This document shows positions 7,793 to 45,097 of a stretch of 45,350 nt of DNA, piece by piece (positions within the stretch are counted from its first letter, which is position 1; every line of letters starts with the position of its first letter). The notes below the pieces were generated by a model. The model searched no databases. It was not told the origin of the DNA and saw only the letters and a program-made list of their open reading frames with translations. This stretch comes from a virus. Position numbers and translations under genes: made by a program. Location of the stretch: positions 1-45,350 of the IMG/VR virus record IMGVR_UViG_3300031841_004244. The stretch is one strand, 5' to 3'.

Positions 7793-8653
7793 ATGAGTGG
7801 TGAAATAGGAATTATTGGAAATGGTTTTGTTGGTGGGGCAGTTGCATATGGCTTCAAAGATAAAAACCCGCTAGTCTATGATTTGAAACCAGAGTTGTGT
7901 AAGAATACACTCGATGAAGTTTTAGGTTGTAAACATATTTTCGTTTGCTTGCCGACACCAATGGTTGAAGAAACTGGTGGAGAAGCAAACTTAAGCATTG
8001 TTGAAAACTGTCTAGAAAATTTAAGCAACCATTTTACAAAGGACTCAGATCAAGTTTTGATTTTGAAGTCTACTGTTCCTGTTGGCACGACCAATAAACT
8101 AGCAGAAAAGTATGATATAAGAAATTTAATTCACTGTCCAGAATTTTTAACTGCTGCTAATGCAAATTATGATTTTGTCAATGCTGATAGAACTGTTATT
8201 GGTTTACCTGATTATGTGCAAGAAAAGTACCTAGACATGGTTCAAAAACTTTTTGAGGACTCTTTCCCTGATATTCCAATTTACACCATGTCATCTGACG
8301 AGTCTGAACTGGTAAAGTATAGTGCGAACTGTTTTCTTGCCACAAAGGTAATGTTTTTCAATATGATAAAAATACTCAGCGAAAAACTTTATTTGGATTA
8401 TGAAAAAATTCTAAACGGTGTTTTGTCAGACCCCAGAATCAGCCCATCTCACACAAAAGTTCCTGGCCCTGATGGTGACTACGGATTTGGCGGCACATGT
8501 TTTCCAAAGGATGTAAATGCGTTAATTAAAACACTGGATGATCATGGTATTCCACCAAGTATCTTAGACTCTGTGTGGGAAGAAAACATGCGTTATAGAG
8601 AAAACTGGGATTGGGCTGAGAATAACTCAGCAGTCAAACGAAAGAACGATTGA
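7793..8653 (+). CDS. UDP-glucose/GDP-mannose dehydrogenase family protein, short form (286 aa)
   Basis: NAD-dependent oxidation of a nucleotide sugar (UDP-glucose or GDP-mannose to the uronic acid). The N-terminal Rossmann motif GIIGNGFVGGAV, the VCLPTP and STVPVGTT loops, the substrate-domain EFL segment and the active-site GFGGTCFPKD (Cys236) are intact. Cellular enzymes run to about 390-450 aa with a C-terminal UDP-binding domain that is absent here; shortened versions occur in marine phages. It lies between the two clamp-loader genes, an odd place for a sugar enzyme. It may feed surface-glycan or DNA/virion sugar modification. AAAGGTT precedes the ATG. Confidence 0.85.
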   Translation: MSGEIGIIGNGFVGGAVAYGFKDKNPLVYDLKPELCKNTLDEVLGCKHIFVCLPTPMVEETGGEANLSIVENCLENLSNHFTKDSDQVLILKSTVPVGTTNKLAEKYDIRNLIHCPEFLTAANANYDFVNADRTVIGLPDYVQEKYLDMVQKLFEDSFPDIPIYTMSSDESELVKYSANCFLATKVMFFNMIKILSEKLYLDYEKILNGVLSDPRISPSHTKVPGPDGDYGFGGTCFPKDVNALIKTLDDHGIPPSILDSVWEENMRYRENWDWAENNSAVKRKND

Positions 8654-15750: not shown

Positions 15751-16392
15751 ATGATTATGTTATTGAATAAAAAATGGTTGAAAAAAGGTTTATCAATACT
15801 TGCTTTGATTTTTCTTTTGTCAATACTTGCAGTTTTAGCAAGACAAAGTTTTTATCCTGCTTTTGGCAACATGAGAGATGTGTCTGTTCGTGCCACTCTG
15901 ACAGAATCGTTTCAGAACATTTCACAATTGAATGTATTGAAGGTTTCTATGGCAGGTATTGTTGATGGTGTTGATGAATCTTTCTGGGGAGACAACAAGG
16001 TACTAATTGTGGCACAAGGATATGCAAATCTTGGTGTTGATCTTTCGTATGTGAACATTTACGTTGATGAGCAAGAAGTACAGATCATTGTTCTTGAGCC
16101 ACAGGTGACTGACGCTTATATCGACATGTCACAATCAAGAATCTATGAAAGAGAACTTGGCACCTTTCGTGTTGATACGAACGGGGAACTTGAAAACTTG
16201 ACATGGCAAAAAGCACATGATAAGATGATTGATATGGCTTATGATGAAAAGAATGTTTCTATGGCGAAGACAAATACGGTTGCGTTGATTCGTGCTTTGA
16301 TCTCACCATACATAGGAAACAGAACATTGACGATTGAGTTTCTAAAGAACGAAAACTACATTGAGGTAATTGACAATGAAATTAACAAGTGA
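15751..16392 (+). CDS. DUF4230-like membrane-anchored protein (213 aa)
   Basis: A basic start and one transmembrane helix (about residues 12-31, LSILALIFLLSILAVLARQS) are followed by an extracytoplasmic domain. The pattern DNKVLIVAQGYANLGVDLS, then IIVLEPQVTDAYIDMSQSRIYERELG and a helical C-terminal half resembles DUF4230, a family of bacterial membrane-anchored proteins of unknown role. Here it lies after the polymerase and before the tRNAs. AAGGAATAATT precedes the ATG. A superinfection-exclusion or envelope role would be a guess. Confidence 0.6.
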   Translation: MIMLLNKKWLKKGLSILALIFLLSILAVLARQSFYPAFGNMRDVSVRATLTESFQNISQLNVLKVSMAGIVDGVDESFWGDNKVLIVAQGYANLGVDLSYVNIYVDEQEVQIIVLEPQVTDAYIDMSQSRIYERELGTFRVDTNGELENLTWQKAHDKMIDMAYDEKNVSMAKTNTVALIRALISPYIGNRTLTIEFLKNENYIEVIDNEINK

Positions 16393-16534: not shown

Positions 16535-16606
16535 GCCAACGTAGCACAACGGTAGTGCAGTTCACTTGTAATGAACAGGTTGCTGGTTCGAATCCAGTCG
16601 TTGGCT
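16535..16606 (+). tRNA. tRNA-Thr (anticodon TGT)
   Basis: Cloverleaf with acceptor GCCAACG (16535-16541) pairing CGTTGGC (16599-16605), T8-A9, D arm GCAC/GTGC, anticodon stem GTTCA/TGAAC with loop CTTGTAA (anticodon at 16567-16569), T arm GCTGG-TTCGAAT-CCAGT. CCA is not encoded. It reads ACA codons, frequent in this AT-rich genome. Confidence 0.93.
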
Positions 16607-16620
16607 TTCGGAGATAAAAC

Positions 16621-16788
16621 ATGGCAGGAAAAGGCGATTCATATCGAAAAGTGAATCAAAAGAAATGGGAAGAAAATTGGGAAAGGGCTTTCGGTGCTAA
16701 AAACAGGAAAAGAAACACACCAACAAATGCAAAAGGCGTATCTTCGAGGAAAAAGAAAACCTCTACCCGTAACAACAACAAACACTAA
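16621..16788 (+). CDS. Small basic phage protein (55 aa)
   Basis: Starts MAGKGDSYRKVNQKKWEENW and continues ERAFGAK, a recurring small-protein pattern in many phages (MAGKGD...KW..NW..IFG). The C-terminus is Lys/Arg/Asn rich. CGGAG lies upstream of the ATG. It sits between tRNA-Thr and an unknown gene. Function is unknown; small size and charge suggest nucleic-acid or ribosome contact. Confidence 0.65.
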   Translation: MAGKGDSYRKVNQKKWEENWERAFGAKNRKRNTPTNAKGVSSRKKKTSTRNNNKH

Positions 16789-16821
16789 AGAGTGGATTGA
16801 AAAAATCAAAAAGGATAAACA

Positions 16822-17151
16822 ATGAGTAATGTGAAAAATGTGAGTCTTGCTACAGGTGAAAGTATTATTGCTGATTGCAGTGGTCTTGGCGAAGACAAAA
16901 AATACTTTGAAATCAAAAACGCAGCAATTGTATTGCGTAAAGATATTGCATCGCCAATGATGCTTCTGCCTTGGATTGATCATGCAGAAAAAGATCAAAC
17001 TATTTCTATTAGTTCAGATAAAGTTATTTGGTATTGTGATGTTAGTGATGAGTTAGAAGATCAGTATGATAAAGCCGTGACGAAGTGGTATTCGAACCTT
17101 GTTGTTCCTGATGCTGCAACGACACAAAGACTAAAGATTACTGAAGATTGA
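16822..17151 (+). CDS. Unknown protein with a possible Sm-like fold (109 aa)
   Basis: The opening VSLATGESIIADC, followed by YFEIKNAAIVLRK and LPWIDHAEKDQTISISSDKVI, resembles small phage proteins with an Lsm/Sm-like beta barrel (TGE-IIA-V then a strand ending before a Pro). This is a weak, pattern-based suggestion. The C-terminus is helical and acidic. It lies between tRNA-Thr and tRNA-Arg. AAGGATAAAC precedes the ATG. Confidence 0.55.
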   Translation: MSNVKNVSLATGESIIADCSGLGEDKKYFEIKNAAIVLRKDIASPMMLLPWIDHAEKDQTISISSDKVIWYCDVSDELEDQYDKAVTKWYSNLVVPDAATTQRLKITED

Positions 17152-17157
17152 TTTTAG

Positions 17158-17230
17158 GCTCTCGTAGCATAACGGATAATGCAACTGACTTCTAATCAGT
17201 AGATTGCAGGTTCGAATCCTGCCGAGAGCG
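17158..17230 (+). tRNA. tRNA-Arg (anticodon TCT)
   Basis: Acceptor GCTCTCG pairs CGAGAGC (17223-17229); T8-A9; anticodon stem ACTGA/TCAGT with loop CTTCTAA (anticodon 17191-17193); T arm GCAGG-TTCGAAT-CCTGC. CCA is not encoded. It reads AGA, the dominant Arg codon in many genes here (for example the lysine/arginine-rich virion genes). Confidence 0.94.
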
Positions 17231-17255
17231 TTTTGCAAATAAAAGGAGATTTATT

Positions 17256-17429
17256 ATGAAAAAAATTGCAAAGGTTTGTCACGTTTTAGGTTTTGCTTCG
17301 ATTGCACTTTCTGCCTATTGCTACAATGCATATGGTATCGCTGATGCGACCTATGTTGGTCTTTGGGTTCCTTCGTTCTTTCTTGTAGGCAATTTCTTTG
17401 CTTGCAAATCACATTGTAAGAAGAAGTAA
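17256..17429 (+). CDS. Small two-pass membrane protein (57 aa)
   Basis: AAAGGAGATT gives a strong ribosome site. Two hydrophobic stretches (about residues 5-24 VCHVLGFASIALSAYC and 34-50 VGLWVPSFFLVGNFFAC) flank a polar turn, and the end is KSHCKKK. It contains five cysteines. It sits between tRNA-Arg and tRNA-Leu(TAG). No family is recognised. Confidence 0.6.
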   Translation: MKKIAKVCHVLGFASIALSAYCYNAYGIADATYVGLWVPSFFLVGNFFACKSHCKKK

Positions 17430-17433
17430 ATAG

Positions 17434-17450
17434 GGGTGATTTAATCACCC
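17434..17450 (+). promoter_or_regulatory. Perfect hairpin directly before tRNA-Leu(TAG)
   Basis: GGGTGAT (17434-17440) and ATCACCC (17444-17450) form a 7-bp stem with a 3-nt loop, 4 bp before the tRNA 5' end. There is no T-run, so it is not a standard terminator; it may direct tRNA 5' processing or stabilise the upstream mRNA. Confidence 0.4.
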
Positions 17451-17454
17451 AATC

Positions 17455-17528
17455 GGGAGTGTAGCCCAATTGGCAGAGGCGCAAGATTTAGGTTCTTGTT
17501 GTTGTAGGTTCGAGTCCTATCACTCTCA
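17455..17528 (+). tRNA. tRNA-Leu (anticodon TAG) with short variable loop
   Basis: Acceptor GGGAGTG pairs CACTCTC (17521-17527) with one G-T; anticodon stem CAAGA/TCTTG with loop TTTAGGT (anticodon 17489-17491); T arm GTAGG-TTCGAGT-CCTAT. Only 5 nt lie between anticodon and T stems, whereas cellular bacterial Leu tRNAs have a long variable arm. CCA is not encoded. It reads CTA. Confidence 0.85.
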
Positions 17529-17530
17529 TT

Positions 17531-18157
17531 ATGAGTATTTTGTTTTTGACATTAATTTTAAATATTGAAAATAAATCGGTTTATCAAACACCGCTTGAAA
17601 GACTTGTTCATCTTGTTGAGTCTGATGGTAGACTTACAAACAACGAGCCTATACTAGGTGACTGGTGTGAAAAAAGACAAAGGTTTCTTTCGAGAGGGCC
17701 TTTGCAAATAACCAGAGATTGTCATACCGATGCTAATGTTAGTTTTCCGTATGAAGAGGTAGATAGCCTAGAAAACTCACTGATTGTTTTTCGTAAATAT
17801 ATGAAACGATATGCCAACAAAGATAGATTTGTGCGATTAGGCATTAATAGAGAACCTACCGCAGAAGACATGTTAAGAATTTGGGTTGGTGGACCAAAAG
17901 GCTTTTTGAAAAAGTCAACAGATTCTTATTGGGAAAATAGTTTAAGGAGATTTTTGATGAAACTCAATGTAGGGCAAAAAGTATTTTGTAAGAGTTCAAA
18001 TAGAGAGGCAACTATTGTCTCAATCAACGAAGAAAAGATTACAATCAAGTATGAGACATCTGGTGAGATCACAGAAGTAACACAAGGACAGATTTCACAG
18101 TTGCTTCTTGGAAACAATGATCAATCAGATCAAACTTTTTTACAAGAGGGTCAATAA
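17531..18157 (+). CDS. i-type-lysozyme-like endolysin candidate (208 aa)
   Basis: Likely cleaves peptidoglycan. After a hydrophobic N-terminus (ILFLTLIL, possible signal-anchor) it shows the order of invertebrate-type (destabilase) lysozymes: VESDGR with Glu30 as candidate acid, RGPLQITRDC (55-64), YMKRYA (90-95), then AEDMLRIWVGGPKG (111-124) and YW (133-134). Residues about 143-195 form a second beta-rich domain (VGQKVFCKSSNREATIVSIN) like an SH3/Tudor wall-binding module. The ATG is 3 bp after tRNA-Leu(TAG) with no Shine-Dalgarno. It shares one base with the next gene. Confidence 0.68.
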   Translation: MSILFLTLILNIENKSVYQTPLERLVHLVESDGRLTNNEPILGDWCEKRQRFLSRGPLQITRDCHTDANVSFPYEEVDSLENSLIVFRKYMKRYANKDRFVRLGINREPTAEDMLRIWVGGPKGFLKKSTDSYWENSLRRFLMKLNVGQKVFCKSSNREATIVSINEEKITIKYETSGEITEVTQGQISQLLLGNNDQSDQTFLQEGQ

Positions 18158-19125
18158 TGGGAAAGTGTCCATTTTCAATATTTCAAAGCAAAAAAGGTCG
18201 TGTTGAGGAAGTAAAACCCTCCATCGTACAAGATCATACAGAATCACCTTTCTTAAGAGTGAGAAGATTACATCCAACCCAAGGGATTAAAATTGTTCCA
18301 GCAAACCGTAAACTAATAGGTCCTGATGGTCAAAATGAAACAGAGCATAATTACTCTAGATCTGGAGCGATCAAAAGATGCGGCCCTTATGTTCACGCAA
18401 ACAGTTTAGGTTGGTGGATCTTTCCTGCTGTCGATTTAGATGCTACTTATCACCCCAACGGTGAATGGACAATACACGAATATAACAAGTTTGATGAAAT
18501 TCAACAACATGAGTACCTGTCTAGTCTACCATCCTATGAGTATAAAACAGAGAGTGGAGAAACTCGTGAATTACCATCAAAATATTTAACTAGAAGTTAT
18601 GTTAATGCAGGTCTCGCAGATGAGAATATTCTTCAAATCTGGACAGGAGTTATTCTCAGAACACCGCCTGGTTGGGGACTTTTAATTCGAAGTCCAATCA
18701 ATGTGGAAGAGGACTATGATAGATCTTGGTACATTCAAGAGGGAGTCATAGAATCTGATTGGATGGATTATGATATTTGGACAAATATTGTTTTTAAGAA
18801 GCCAAATCAGAAAGTTGAAATACGTCAAAAGATGTGGCCTCCCCTCGCACAAATTGTTCCAATTCGTCGAGAAGCCTATGATACAAAATGGGATATTGAT
18901 GATCAGTTAATTACTGCTGATGATCCAGAATTTGCTTCTTGGCAAGATTATACCTTTAAAAAATGGACACAGATAAACGAAAAAGAAGGTAAAACATATT
19001 ACAAAGAGCGAGCAGTTCAAAAACCACGTCCTGATGATTCAAAGATTGAGTCTCTTCGTGAAAAATATGCTACCAGTAGAAACGAACATCAGGTAAGAAA
19101 AGATGTGAAAAAGGATTCAGAATAA
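18157..19125 (+). CDS. DUF6065-like protein, copy 1 (322 aa)
   Basis: Shares with the gene at 23868 the start MxKCPF, a core ANSLGWWIFPAVD, an LQIWTGVILRTPPGWGLLIRSPIN segment, then EGVIESDW and PLAQIVPIRR. This is the pattern of DUF6065, a family of unknown function known from bacteria and phages (name from memory). The C-terminal ~80 residues are charged and helical. Tight TAATG coupling to the lysozyme-like gene. The first Cys-containing motif may bind metal or be modified; no activity is known. Confidence 0.7.
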   Translation: MGKCPFSIFQSKKGRVEEVKPSIVQDHTESPFLRVRRLHPTQGIKIVPANRKLIGPDGQNETEHNYSRSGAIKRCGPYVHANSLGWWIFPAVDLDATYHPNGEWTIHEYNKFDEIQQHEYLSSLPSYEYKTESGETRELPSKYLTRSYVNAGLADENILQIWTGVILRTPPGWGLLIRSPINVEEDYDRSWYIQEGVIESDWMDYDIWTNIVFKKPNQKVEIRQKMWPPLAQIVPIRREAYDTKWDIDDQLITADDPEFASWQDYTFKKWTQINEKEGKTYYKERAVQKPRPDDSKIESLREKYATSRNEHQVRKDVKKDSE

Positions 19126-19130
19126 AATCA

Positions 19131-19203
19131 GGCCCTGTAGCCCAACGGTAGAGGCAGTGGACTTAAAATCCATACAGTTCGGGTTCGAATCCCGATGGGG
19201 CTA
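19131..19203 (+). tRNA. tRNA-Leu (anticodon TAA) with short variable loop
   Basis: Acceptor GGCCCTG pairs TGGGGCT (19196-19202) with G-T pairs, followed by A73; T8-A9; anticodon stem GTGGA/TCCAT with loop CTTAAAA (anticodon 19164-19166); T arm TCGGG-TTCGAAT-CCCGA. The variable region is 5 nt, unlike the long arm of normal bacterial Leu tRNAs. It ends 4 bp before the stop of a convergent gene. Confidence 0.87.
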
Positions 19204-22625: not shown

Positions 22626-22834
22626 TGAAATGTTCAGACTGTGGAAAAAATATTCCTTCTTTGCGATTAGAGGCTGTACCAGGCACACAACATTGTGTAG
22701 ACTGTATAGATAAACATATGCCCAGAAGAAAAGGGTACATGATCTACGGCCACAAAACTGCTGGTGAAATTGTTATGGCAACTGGTGATGAAAACATTCG
22801 TCGCCTTGAAAGAGAATATTTTAGGAGTAGATGA
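22625..22834 (+). CDS. DksA/TraR-like zinc-finger protein (69 aa)
   Basis: CSDCGKNIPSLRLEAVPGTQHCVDC is the four-Cys zinc finger of the DksA/TraR family, which acts in the RNA-polymerase secondary channel. The long coiled-coil arm that carries the acidic tip in DksA is missing, so direct polymerase modulation is uncertain. The C-terminal part is basic (RRLEREYFRSR). TAATG coupling to the nucleosidase and ATGA coupling to the next gene. Confidence 0.75.
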   Translation: MKCSDCGKNIPSLRLEAVPGTQHCVDCIDKHMPRRKGYMIYGHKTAGEIVMATGDENIRRLEREYFRSR

Positions 22835-23220
22835 TGAATAGAAACCCGACAATTTATGTTGCTGGCCCAATGCGTGGCTATGAAGATTATAATTATCCTG
22901 CCTTTGATCGTTGCTCTAGAGTGCTTCGAGAACAGGGTTGGAATGTTATTAACCCCGCTGAACTAGACAGAGATGCAGGCAAGCCTATGTCTGATCCTAT
23001 GTCTTTTGCACCAGACACAAACTATGAAGATCACGAGTTTATGAGAAAAGCATTGCGTCGTGACATGGTTGCAATTTGCGATGAATGTACCGCAATCTAC
23101 ATGATGAGCAACTGGGAAAGAAGCAAGGGTGCAAACGCAGAGTTAGCATTATCAAAAGCAATGGGTCTTGACATCTATTATGAGGCACCATTACCAAAAG
23201 TAAAGGAAGAACTTAAATGA
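22831..23220 (+). CDS. DUF4406-like nucleoside deoxyribosyltransferase-type protein (129 aa)
   Basis: IYVAGPMRGYEDYNYPAFDRCSRVLREQGWNVINPAEL is the hallmark start of DUF4406, a phage-rich branch of the nucleoside 2-deoxyribosyltransferase-like fold. The later DMVAICDECTAIYMMSNWERSKGANAELALSKAMG contains the SxGAxxEL catalytic-site pattern. It may act in nucleotide salvage or modification. ATGA coupling on both sides; the second ATG (22834) could also be the start. Confidence 0.8.
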   Translation: MMNRNPTIYVAGPMRGYEDYNYPAFDRCSRVLREQGWNVINPAELDRDAGKPMSDPMSFAPDTNYEDHEFMRKALRRDMVAICDECTAIYMMSNWERSKGANAELALSKAMGLDIYYEAPLPKVKEELK

Positions 23221-23730: not shown

Positions 23731-23868
23731 ATGGCAAGACAAACCACAAACGAAAAAGCACATGTTCAGGGTCTTTTGAAAGAGGGTCGTTTGCGTCCTT
23801 CTAAGAGATCAAAAAGACCAGGTGCTGCTCGAACAAGTCGATCAGGTAACGGAAAGAAAATTAAGTAA
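23731..23868 (+). CDS. Small basic protein (45 aa)
   Basis: CAGGAGAAC precedes the ATG. Lys/Arg/Ser/Gly rich (GRLRPSKRSKRPGAARTSRSGNGKK), likely disordered and nucleic-acid binding. It shares one base with the DUF6065-like gene that follows. Confidence 0.5.
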   Translation: MARQTTNEKAHVQGLLKEGRLRPSKRSKRPGAARTSRSGNGKKIK

Positions 23869-24842
23869 TGTCAAAGTGTCCTTTTGGTTTTATAGCAGAA
23901 AAGTTTAACAAGGATAATCCTGATCTGAAAACAACAAAAGAAAGTTATCCAAAAGAAACTTTTGATGAGTCTAAACTTTCAATCATTGCACATGATGTTG
24001 GTGCTGCTGAATGGGGTATTGAAATAGAAACCGCACCATCTCAAAGAGAATGGATGACTGACACGAAAGGTCATGCTTACAAGTGTTTACCTTTGGTTGC
24101 CGCAAATAACCTAGGTTGGGTATTGAGATGTCCATCATCTTTTTCTGCTTATTGGACTGGTAATAAAGGATTAAACTCTGTTCGTATAATTCCACACACA
24201 AAAGAAAAAATTAATTTTGTCCAATCGCATTTTGGACATGGAACTTTAACTTTTCATCCTGGGTTTATTTTTACAACAACAAAAAATCACGGACTCTATG
24301 TAAAAGGACCAACAAACCTTCCCGACTTTGAAAAAAAAATGGGCATAACACCATTAGAAGGTCTTGTTGAAACTGACTGGCTTCAATTTTCATTTACAAT
24401 GAACTGGAAATTCACTGAGTCTCGAAGACTAGTTACTTTTTATCAAGATGACATTTTTTGTCAATTTTTTCCATATCCTAGAAGTTATGTTTCGCAGTTT
24501 GAAACAGACACAAGATTAATTGAAGACAGTAAAGGTTTTGAAAAGTCTGTGCGAAATTACAAAGAACATCGAGATCTTGTGCAAAAGACAATTGAAGAAA
24601 CAAAAGAATCGCCGCCAAAAGATATTCAACTACACTATCTTCGAGGAGAAAATATTGATGGTACAAAAACTTCAATTTCAGAACTTGGTTTTACACATGA
24701 ACCCAAGTGCGGTGCAAAAAAGTTTCCTGTGATATCTAAAGATCAATTGGTGTATGAAACTGAAGAGATACAAGATCTTTTAGACAAAGGCGCCGAACAT
24801 GAAGAAATAGTTGAAAAGATTAAAGAAAAAAATGAAGATTAA
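23868..24842 (+). CDS. DUF6065-like protein, copy 2 (324 aa)
   Basis: Paralogue of the gene at 18157. The start is MSKCPF, followed by a family-typical YKCLPLVAANNLGWVLRCP, SHFGHGTLTFHPGFIFTT, GLYVKGPTNLPD and EGLVETDWLQFSFTMNWKF. This copy keeps the N-terminal part usual in the family better than copy 1. The C-terminal ~70 residues are acidic and helical. It ends the operon; a terminator follows. Catalytic function is unknown. Confidence 0.72.
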   Translation: MSKCPFGFIAEKFNKDNPDLKTTKESYPKETFDESKLSIIAHDVGAAEWGIEIETAPSQREWMTDTKGHAYKCLPLVAANNLGWVLRCPSSFSAYWTGNKGLNSVRIIPHTKEKINFVQSHFGHGTLTFHPGFIFTTTKNHGLYVKGPTNLPDFEKKMGITPLEGLVETDWLQFSFTMNWKFTESRRLVTFYQDDIFCQFFPYPRSYVSQFETDTRLIEDSKGFEKSVRNYKEHRDLVQKTIEETKESPPKDIQLHYLRGENIDGTKTSISELGFTHEPKCGAKKFPVISKDQLVYETEEIQDLLDKGAEHEEIVEKIKEKNED

Positions 24843-31386: not shown

Positions 31387-32838
31387 ATGAAAGTTATTGT
31401 TTTTTCTAGTCGTGCAAGTAATACCGAAGAGGGTGAAAACTCTGGTCTTATGCGAACTGCCAAGAGAATTAAAGAGGAATCTAAAAAACTTGGTGTTTCG
31501 TGTTATGTTTTTTTCAAAGAAGATTTAAATTACGAAAAGAAAAACAATAAACATTTTGTAAAGAGTGAAGATAAAGCGGAAGAGATTTCTGTTGATGACA
31601 CCATCATCATTGTGAGAGGTGCAACAAAAGAAGACTCATCCGCTTTGTCTATTTTATCCTCTCTTGAAGACGAAGGGTTTTTCATTGTTAATACAAAAGA
31701 GTGTGTTGAAATATGCGAAGACAAATATCGAACACATCTTCGTCTTAGTCAAGAAAAAATACCATCACCAAAAACAGTTGCTTTACCAAAACCAATTTTT
31801 GATGAAGAGGATGATCCTAGAAAAATAGAGAATATTAAAAACTACACTGTTCAGGTAGGGTCAAAGTATCCAATGATTCTAAAAACATCAACAGGATCAA
31901 AAGGCAGTGGTGTGATGATTATTGAATCAGAAAACTCTCTTGTTTCTGTTGTTCAAACAATACACAAAGTTGATCGAGAAGCAAATCTTTTGCTTCAAGA
32001 GTACATACCATACAAAAAAGATATGCGTGTGATTGTTCTTGGCAACGAAGTAGTCGCTGCAATGGAAAGAAAAAGTGTTGATGGCGACTTCAGAAGCAAT
32101 TATTCACTCGGCGGCAAAGCAAAGTCTGTCAACATAGATGATAATCAAAAACAACTTGCCATTGATGCCGCATCGGCAGTTGAGGGTGTGTTCGTTGGTG
32201 TTGACATTCTTGAGTCTAATGGCAGAAATTATGTCATTGAAGTAAACGCTTCGCCTGGAACTGAGGGTATTGAGACTGCGACTAAAAAGAACGTGACAAA
32301 AGAGTTTCTTGAGTATTGTCTAAACAAGACAAACTGGACAAACAAAGAGACAAACAATGTAAAACTTGACGGTGAAAGCATAGACGAAATGTATGAAAAC
32401 TATGTGTATGACACGAGTTCGATGTATTTTAATAAAAGTCTGTTGGTTCGAAAAGTAGAAAATTCTAGAGTAAACGAGTCTAAGAAAATAGATCGTCTTT
32501 TAAAACTCGAAAAGCAAGGTGATTTGTTTGCTCGTTTGTGCATCGAAGAAGCGAAAAATCGTCAAAGAAAAGAAGAATCTGAGAAGTGGCTTAATAAAAC
32601 GTTTGAAGAAAACTTTAAGCAGAAAGAAAATACTTCCAAAGTAAATACCAAACGGGATAAATACATACAAGCCTTTGGTGAGAATTGGCAAAAAGTTTAT
32701 TATGCTGAAGCATGGAGAAAGTATAACGAAGAGTATGATGAAAGCGATTTAGAAGGCACTGATGCTTCTGTGATCAAAAGGAAATCACAAACACCTGGTG
32801 AACCTTTGTATGATTTGGTCAGAAAAAGAAATGTATAA
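31387..32838 (+). CDS. ATP-grasp ligase, RimK-like (483 aa)
   Basis: ATP-dependent carboxylate-amine ligase. Family features are CEDKYRTHLRLSQEKIPSPKT, then YPMILKTSTGSKGSGVMI (ATP loop), LLLQEYIPYKKDMRVIVLGNEVVAAMERKS, and the Mg-binding end FVGVDILESNGRNYVIEVNASPGTEGIE. RimK adds glutamates to protein ends and relatives make peptide bonds on proteins or metabolites. The C-terminal ~180 residues are a separate charged helical extension. Such ligases recur in structural regions of T4-like marine phages, suggesting modification of a virion or host protein. The substrate is unknown. Confidence 0.85.
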   Translation: MKVIVFSSRASNTEEGENSGLMRTAKRIKEESKKLGVSCYVFFKEDLNYEKKNNKHFVKSEDKAEEISVDDTIIIVRGATKEDSSALSILSSLEDEGFFIVNTKECVEICEDKYRTHLRLSQEKIPSPKTVALPKPIFDEEDDPRKIENIKNYTVQVGSKYPMILKTSTGSKGSGVMIIESENSLVSVVQTIHKVDREANLLLQEYIPYKKDMRVIVLGNEVVAAMERKSVDGDFRSNYSLGGKAKSVNIDDNQKQLAIDAASAVEGVFVGVDILESNGRNYVIEVNASPGTEGIETATKKNVTKEFLEYCLNKTNWTNKETNNVKLDGESIDEMYENYVYDTSSMYFNKSLLVRKVENSRVNESKKIDRLLKLEKQGDLFARLCIEEAKNRQRKEESEKWLNKTFEENFKQKENTSKVNTKRDKYIQAFGENWQKVYYAEAWRKYNEEYDESDLEGTDASVIKRKSQTPGEPLYDLVRKRNV

Positions 32839-44863: not shown

Positions 44864-45097
44864 ATGAGTCAGTATAGATTGCACATTGATATTCCTCTCA
44901 ACACAGATGGGAAAGTTCCTACAGAAGTGGTCGAAAAGATTATGACTGTATTTGATAAATCAAATTTTTGTGTTGAAGGAATACAATGTGTAAACTATCG
45001 TCTTGGTCATGATGATGACCGTCAACGTTCAAACTATCTTGACATCAACGAGAACGGTCACTGTAGTAATAGGAAATCAAAAATTGTCTATGATTGA
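44864..45097 (+). CDS. Small unknown protein (77 aa)
   Basis: Starts 4 bp after the previous stop. YRLHIDIPLNTDGKVPTEVVEKIMTVFDKSNFCVEGIQCVNYRLGHDDDR suggests a compact beta-alpha-beta fold with a metal-like HDDD. It overlaps the next small gene by 8 bp. The function is not recognised. Confidence 0.55.
   Translation: MSQYRLHIDIPLNTDGKVPTEVVEKIMTVFDKSNFCVEGIQCVNYRLGHDDDRQRSNYLDINENGHCSNRKSKIVYD

What the first reader, a model, noticed from the sequence alone, without database searches (positions are those of the whole stretch)
17531..18157. Invertebrate-type lysozyme fold in a phage endolysin
The order RGPLQI - YMKRYA - PTAEDMLRIWVGGPKG - YW is that of i-type (destabilase) lysozymes, a group known mainly from animals, joined here to a small barrel domain. 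It lies 3 bp after a tRNA with no ribosome site. If confirmed it is an uncommon endolysin type and a candidate source group for the animal enzymes, or the reverse.
Basis: partly seen in the sequence, partly recalled or inferred. Interest (0 to 1): 0.66.

Follow-up and report, generated by a model that had tools for sequence, protein, structure and literature searches.

The report
Animal-type lysozyme in a marine phage
A virus of marine bacteria carries a cell-wall-cutting enzyme with the fold and catalytic residues of the lysozymes of clams and leeches; it belongs to a little-studied phage and bacterial branch that databases already hold under the name destabilase, so it is a good find but not a new kind of enzyme.

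Summary
The ORF at 17531-18157 (208 aa) encodes an i-type (destabilase-like) lysozyme domain (aa ~19-142) plus a small beta-barrel (aa 143-208). The domain scores 78 bits on a profile of 37 phage and bacterial relatives (best of 2000 shuffles: 4.5). Its AlphaFold2 model matches leech destabilase and clam lysozymes at Z 14-15; the next fold, MltF, reaches 7.9. The catalytic dyad is kept as Glu30 and Asp44.

The interpretation needs three corrections. (1) Destabilase-like phage lysozymes are already in public records (Cellulophaga phage Calle_1; a UniProt "Destabilase [uncultured Caudovirales phage]"), so this is a new, divergent member. (2) The barrel is probably not a wall-binding domain: its homologue is a separate gene just downstream of the lysozyme in two related viruses and occurs without a lysozyme in a third; here it keeps its own ribosome site and ATG (17944/17957). 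(3) The window lies in an all-viral clade and is not the nearest group to the animal enzymes; direction of transfer is unresolved.

Most likely role: peptidoglycan hydrolysis at host lysis. The protein misses the Pfam destabilase cut-off, lacks the animal cysteines, and has Trp where leech has His112. Activity is untested.

The parts
17531..18157 (+). single reading frame of 208 codons holding the lysozyme domain and the barrel
   Evidence: no stop inside
17531..17560 (+). short hydrophobic N-terminus (MSILFLTLIL), possible export signal; relatives have similar or longer hydrophobic starts
   Evidence: sequence; model helix 2-10; relatives
17585..17956 (+). i-type (destabilase-like) lysozyme domain, aa 19-142
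17618..17620 (+). Glu30, catalytic acid (= leech Glu34); invariant in 37 of 37 relatives
   Evidence: leech dyad from PMC10126035
17660..17662 (+). Asp44 of the GD motif, second catalytic carboxylate (= leech Asp46); 36 of 37 relatives
17882..17884 (+). Trp118 at the place of leech His112 (proposed isopeptidase base); W in 12 and H in 25 of 37 relatives
17944..17949 (+). internal ribosome-binding site AAGGAG, 7 nt before ATG 17957
   Evidence: sequence; same arrangement before the separate barrel genes of L003 and L005 and L051
17957..18157 (+). 66-aa Tudor/KOW/SH3-like barrel; homologue of a separate gene in L003, L005 and L051; probably translated from its own ATG
17455..17528 (+). tRNA-Leu (tag) directly upstream; no encoded CCA
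18157..19125 (+). next gene (DUF6065 family), start overlaps the stop (TAATG)

Best explanation
The first 142 residues are a muramidase of the prokaryotic/viral branch of the i-type (destabilase-like) lysozymes, which cleaves host peptidoglycan with Glu30 as general acid and Asp44 as its partner, most likely at host lysis in this T4-like marine phage. The 66-residue barrel behind it is by origin a separate downstream gene with its own ribosome site; its frame has run together with the lysozyme's here, so the locus probably gives the free barrel protein and also a lysozyme-barrel read-through protein. Shown: homology, predicted fold, catalytic residues, separate barrel gene in relatives, internal ribosome site. 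Inferred: activity, lysis role, two products.
For: phmmer leech destabilase E 3.3e-4; profile of 38 members finds all four distinct i-type PDB sequences at 2.6e-28 to 5.8e-19, next best EmtA at 5e-4; window 78.4 bits against best shuffle 4.5; AF2 pLDDT 86.5 overall and above 90 over most of the domain; VIA Z 15.1 (leech), 14.4 and 14.3 (clams), then 7.9; E30 37/37 and D44 36/37. Near relative L002, about 50% identical over the domain, passes PF05497 at 35.6 bits, cut-off 26.2. The other relatives aligned end about where the window's internal ATG begins. Barrel homologue separate in L003/L005 and without a lysozyme in L051. Lysozyme gene beside or near the DNA polymerase gene in two viruses whose polymerase is 57% and 49% identical to the window's.
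Against: The window protein itself does not reach Pfam's destabilase cut-off, sits on a long branch and has V119 where 36 of 37 relatives have Asn, so some loss of activity is possible. No exact late-promoter motif TATAAATA lies near the gene. No holin was identified beside it. No activity data for any member of this phage branch were met in the papers found.
Confidence: 0.72

Rival explanations
1. Two-polypeptide endolysin from a single gene: the fusion is the working enzyme and the internal start makes a C-terminal subunit that assembles with it, as in CTP1L, LysIME-EF1 and LysP7951.
For: Layout fits: in-frame internal ATG with a good ribosome site and a shared stop; the strategy is documented for phages of Gram-positive bacteria (PMC4777826, PMC7098653, PMC9430671).
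Against: The barrel's homologues are separate genes, one without any lysozyme; its nearest folds are Tudor/PWWP/KOW/NusG-type, and the tail is acidic (pI 4.7); no lysozyme relative aligned carries it.
Confidence: 0.15
2. A lytic transglycosylase-like (SLT, GH23) or virion-associated wall enzyme used at DNA entry rather than an endolysin.
For: Wider relatives match SLT as well as or better than destabilase (L055, L057, L018); MltF is the next fold.
Against: The window has no SLT hit, keeps the GD aspartate, and overlays i-type lysozymes at about twice the Z of MltF. The gene lies among tRNA and small genes, with no tail gene recognised around it.
Confidence: 0.1
3. The join of lysozyme and barrel is an error of sequence or assembly at a short T run (17951-17955), and the real genes are two, meeting at the barrel's ATG.
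For: Relatives have two genes; in the neighbouring frame a TGA overlaps the ATG exactly at the join.
Against: One metagenome contig, no reads to check; short T runs are rarely misread by short-read machines (general knowledge).
Confidence: 0.25
4. A leech-like enzyme that also has isopeptidase activity.
For: Homology to destabilase; a Ser (S54) in the loop that holds leech Ser49/Ser51.
Against: The proposed base His112 is Trp118 here.
Confidence: 0.03

Closest known systems
Leech destabilase-lysozyme (Hirudo medicinalis, 8BBU/8BBW) and clam i-type lysozymes (2DQA, 3AB6)
   Same: fold (Z 14-15), catalytic Glu/Asp, YMKRY and GGPxG-(x)n-YW motifs
   Different: about 20-30% identity; 2 cysteines in the domain instead of the animal disulfide-rich set; longer loop after the catalytic Asp; Trp instead of His112; phage gene
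Cellulophaga phage Calle_1 Calle1_55 (QQV89760.1), annotated 'lysozyme (Destabilise-like protein)', and phi38:1 gp032
   Same: same wider family, ES...GD...QI and NGG core, signal-like N-terminus, isolated phage
   Different: distant in the tree; no barrel behind it; the published endolysin candidate of Calle is an amidase (PMC8776804)
BFVD A0A516L4Z1 (140 aa, unnamed) and A0A6J5P067 'Destabilase [uncultured Caudovirales phage]'
   Same: viral proteins of the same fold; the first 42% identical over 131 columns
   Different: too short to carry the C-terminal barrel (140 and 135 aa)
IMG/VR relatives L002 and L053 (L002 about 50% identical) and L003/L005 (lysozyme gene followed by separate barrel gene, then tRNA-Leu taa)
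   Same: nearest relatives; tRNA-rich neighbourhood
   Different: lysozyme ends in a stop; barrel separate or absent
EmtA/MltE and MltF lytic transglycosylases (SLT, GH23)
   Same: lysozyme superfamily core and catalytic Glu region
   Different: Z 7.9 or lower (MltF); profile E 5e-4 (EmtA); no SLT hit for the window itself

Membership tests
i-type (destabilase-like) lysozymes, wider family with phage and bacterial members | i-type lysozyme fold | tested here: met
   predicted model: Foldseek top six all i-type; VIA Z 15.1 to leech, next other fold 7.9
i-type (destabilase-like) lysozymes, wider family with phage and bacterial members | catalytic Glu and Asp (leech Glu34/Asp46) | tested here: met
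   E30 and D44 align; 37/37 and 36/37 relatives
i-type (destabilase-like) lysozymes, wider family with phage and bacterial members | C-terminal motifs YMKRY, [HW]NGGPxG, YW | tested here: met
   present, with V for N in NGGP
i-type (destabilase-like) lysozymes, wider family with phage and bacterial members | muramidase activity | not testable with these tools
   needs protein
Pfam PF05497 Destabilase in the strict sense | score over the gathering cut-off of 26.2 bits | tested here: not met
   no hit for the window; L002 and L053 pass (35.6 and 33.0 bits)
animal i-type lysozymes in the strict sense | cysteine-rich, disulfide-stabilised | tested here: not met
   only C46 and C64 in the domain
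animal i-type lysozymes in the strict sense | falls in the animal clade | tested here: not met
   all-viral clade of 8 rows, 95/85; window held together with the animals gives p-AU 0.054, so weak
SLT lytic transglycosylases (PF01464, GH23) | SLT profile match | tested here: not met
   no SLT hit at E 10 or better for the window; some wider relatives do match
phage endolysins | muralytic domain | tested here: met
   by homology and predicted fold only
phage endolysins | release to the periplasm by holin or signal | tested here: inconclusive
   short hydrophobic N-terminus; relatives L008, L053 and Calle_1 have longer signal-like starts; no holin identified
phage endolysins | late expression and need for lysis | not testable with these tools
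   no TATAAATA near the gene, which does not decide it
two-polypeptide single-gene endolysins | in-frame internal start with ribosome site | tested here: met
   AAGGAG 17944, ATG 17957
two-polypeptide single-gene endolysins | C-terminal product is a wall-binding domain of the same enzyme | tested here: inconclusive
   Tudor/KOW-like barrel, separate gene in relatives

The most novel reading that the evidence does not exclude
A phage i-type lysozyme that has captured a downstream Tudor/KOW-like gene in frame, giving a two-product locus read from a transcript that starts almost at its AUG once the upstream tRNA is cut off; and a phage and bacterial family that forms a graded link between SLT transglycosylases and the animal i-type lysozymes, from which the animal enzymes came.
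Probability: 0.12. Interest if true: 0.65.

Novelty: new member of a known kind. Interest (0 to 1): 0.42.

Why it matters
i-type lysozymes are known mainly as invertebrate immune and digestive enzymes. Here is a divergent, well-modelled member in a T4-like marine phage together with some 45 viral and bacterial relatives; every one of the 37 aligned keeps the catalytic Glu. That makes the prokaryotic side of the family testable: are these active muramidases used for lysis, and did animals take theirs from bacteria or phages? The disulfide-poor phage versions could also be simpler starting points for enzyme studies. PhaLP 2.0 treats 'destabilase' hits among predicted phage lysins as doubtful (PMC13237592); the evidence here says such proteins are likely real lysozymes.

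Tried and rejected
Single-sequence scan of viral contigs with the window's domain found no relative, and tblastn of the full protein against 50,697 phage records found none; relatives appeared only with an alignment that included animal sequences, which biases that first set towards animal-like motifs. PHROGs and NCBIfam give nothing useful for the lysozyme part. PF05497 in a Planctomycetota sample rang in 4 of 392 genomes, so the family is sparse there. The barrel as a wall-binding SH3b domain: none is named among the listed best folds, which are Tudor/PWWP/KOW/NusG; not excluded by this alone. Window plus animals as one clade: not in the best tree, p-AU 0.054. Sigma-70-like promoters near the gene are no more than chance. 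No published experiment on a phage destabilase was found, within an open-access library only.

Full report
OBSERVATION. The ORF at 17531-18157 on the plus strand is real: 208 codons, ATG start, all quoted motifs in order. It begins 2 nt after tRNA-Leu(tag), 17455-17528. There is no ribosome-binding site before the ATG, because the upstream bases are the tRNA itself. It is the only copy in the 45-kb virus record.

IS IT MORE THAN CHANCE? phmmer against every PDB sequence returned a single hit at E 10 or better: leech destabilase, 3.3e-4. Pfam's destabilase model does not ring on the window. A scan of viral contigs with an alignment of the window and animal i-type sequences gave 14 viral relatives (proteins). 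The nearest of these, L002 (about 50% identical over the domain), passes PF05497 at 35.6 bits, and L007 scores 59.3 bits. Genome contigs gave 25 more loci, mostly Planctomycetota and Patescibacteria-type lineages, with an Opitutae bacterium and a few others. A profile of 37 relatives without the window scores the window domain at 78.4 bits; the best of 2000 shuffles scores 4.5. The profile of 38 sequences finds all four distinct i-type lysozyme sequences in the PDB at 2.6e-28 to 5.8e-19, then EmtA at 5e-4.

STRUCTURE AND CATALYSIS. AlphaFold2 with the 38-row alignment gives pLDDT 86.5, above 90 over most of the lysozyme domain. Foldseek's six matches under E 0.001 are all i-type lysozymes. VIA-align gives Z 15.1 to leech destabilase over 114 residues at 2.4 A, 14.4 and 14.3 to clam lysozymes, then 7.9 to MltF. 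The leech catalytic dyad is Glu34/Asp46 (PMC10126035). These align with Glu30 (invariant in 37 of 37 relatives) and Asp44 (36 of 37). The proposed isopeptidase base His112 is Trp118 here. The domain has two cysteines only. I therefore place it in the prokaryotic/viral branch of the i-type family, and not in Pfam's PF05497 in the strict sense or among the animal enzymes.

THE BARREL. Residues 143-208 start at an ATG (17957) preceded at 7 nt by AAGGAG (17944-17949). The relatives aligned end close to this point. In L003 and L005 the lysozyme gene ends with a stop and is followed, after its own AAAAGGAG, by a separate 64-aa gene. That protein is homologous to the window's tail (32% identity, E 3e-8 for the pair, including the conserved C-terminal FLxE), and a tRNA-Leu(taa) follows. 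In L051 the barrel gene, 84% identical to that of L003, stands with no lysozyme detected near it. Modelled alone it is a five-stranded Tudor/PWWP/KOW/NusG-like barrel (pLDDT 79; Z up to 8.3, in the range where many barrels score alike). So the two parts were separate genes. The join is either a true recent fusion that keeps the internal start, or an error at the short T run just before the ATG, where the neighbouring frame carries a TGA overlapping the ATG. I cannot decide between these without reads. A single gene with an internal start is a known endolysin strategy in phages of Gram-positive bacteria (PMC9430671), which keeps that rival alive.

CONTEXT. The window is T4-like: family B DNA polymerase about 50% identical to cyanophage polymerases, clamp loader, dUTPase, primase, ribonucleotide reductase. 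In L008 and L015, viruses with polymerases 57% and 49% identical to the window's, the i-type lysozyme gene lies just upstream of, or near, the polymerase gene behind the same dUTPase and 112-aa genes. So this lysozyme type recurs in this phage lineage at shifting positions. Several relatives start with a signal-like hydrophobic stretch; the window has a shorter one. L003 and L005 also lack a clear ribosome site, whereas L004, L006, L008 and L009 have AAAGGAG or similar. Processing of the upstream tRNA, which encodes no CCA, would leave a two-base leader; leaderless translation is an inference, not shown.

EVOLUTION. In a 46-row tree the window falls in an all-viral clade of eight (95/85), with L002, L053, L003-L006 and L009. 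The three animal rows form their own clade on a long branch. Window plus animals as one clade is 13 log units worse, p-AU 0.054. In the first tree the animals lie inside a supported set of phage and planctomycete rows. Only three animal sequences were at hand, the tree is unrooted, and the first search was primed with animal motifs, so no direction of transfer is claimed. Some wider relatives match SLT as well as destabilase, so the family grades into transglycosylase-like proteins.

KNOWN OR NEW. Cellulophaga phage Calle_1 carries a gene annotated 'lysozyme (Destabilise-like protein)', and the viral structure library holds 'Destabilase [uncultured Caudovirales phage]' and an unnamed 42%-identical protein. 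PhaLP 2.0 mentions destabilase domains among predicted lysins as possible false labels. The type is therefore already in databases, apparently untested in the papers reached. Verdict: new, divergent member of a known kind, with an unusual junction to the next gene.

Noticed in passing
window 217, 2240, 27182, 28341, 32834, 35084, 35788, 42950: Eight exact TATAAATA (T4 late-promoter core), all on the + strand, against 1.2 expected (none of 100 shuffles reached 8); none lies near the lysozyme.
   Followed up: partly
window 18157-19125 and 23868-24842: Two proteins both matching phrog_7084 (unknown function); the first also matches Pfam DUF6065.
   Followed up: no
window 31387-32838 and 7793-8653: Matches to ribosomal protein S6 glutaminyl transferase (phrog_2599) and UDP-glucose dehydrogenase (phrog_9148) families: possible host-modifying genes.
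   Followed up: no
window 15751-16392: DUF4230 protein with an N-terminal hydrophobic segment directly after the DNA polymerase gene.
   Followed up: no
window 16535-19203: Four tRNA genes interleaved with small ORFs; the lysozyme ATG follows one by 2 nt, so tRNA cleavage could leave a nearly leaderless mRNA.
   Followed up: partly
L019 (NYST01000001.1): Contig filed as Euryarchaeota MAG carries a lysozyme 75% identical to phage L007 and a homologue of window ORF 44864-45097; probably a phage contig binned into an archaeal MAG.
   Followed up: partly
L008 4821-5237, L015 4818-5285: i-type lysozyme gene directly upstream of the phage DNA polymerase (L008, overlapping by 11 bp) or one gene away (L015).
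   Followed up: partly
window 22831-23220: 129-aa ORF 81% identical to L003, much closer than the lysozymes of the two viruses, which suggests mosaic exchange.
   Followed up: no
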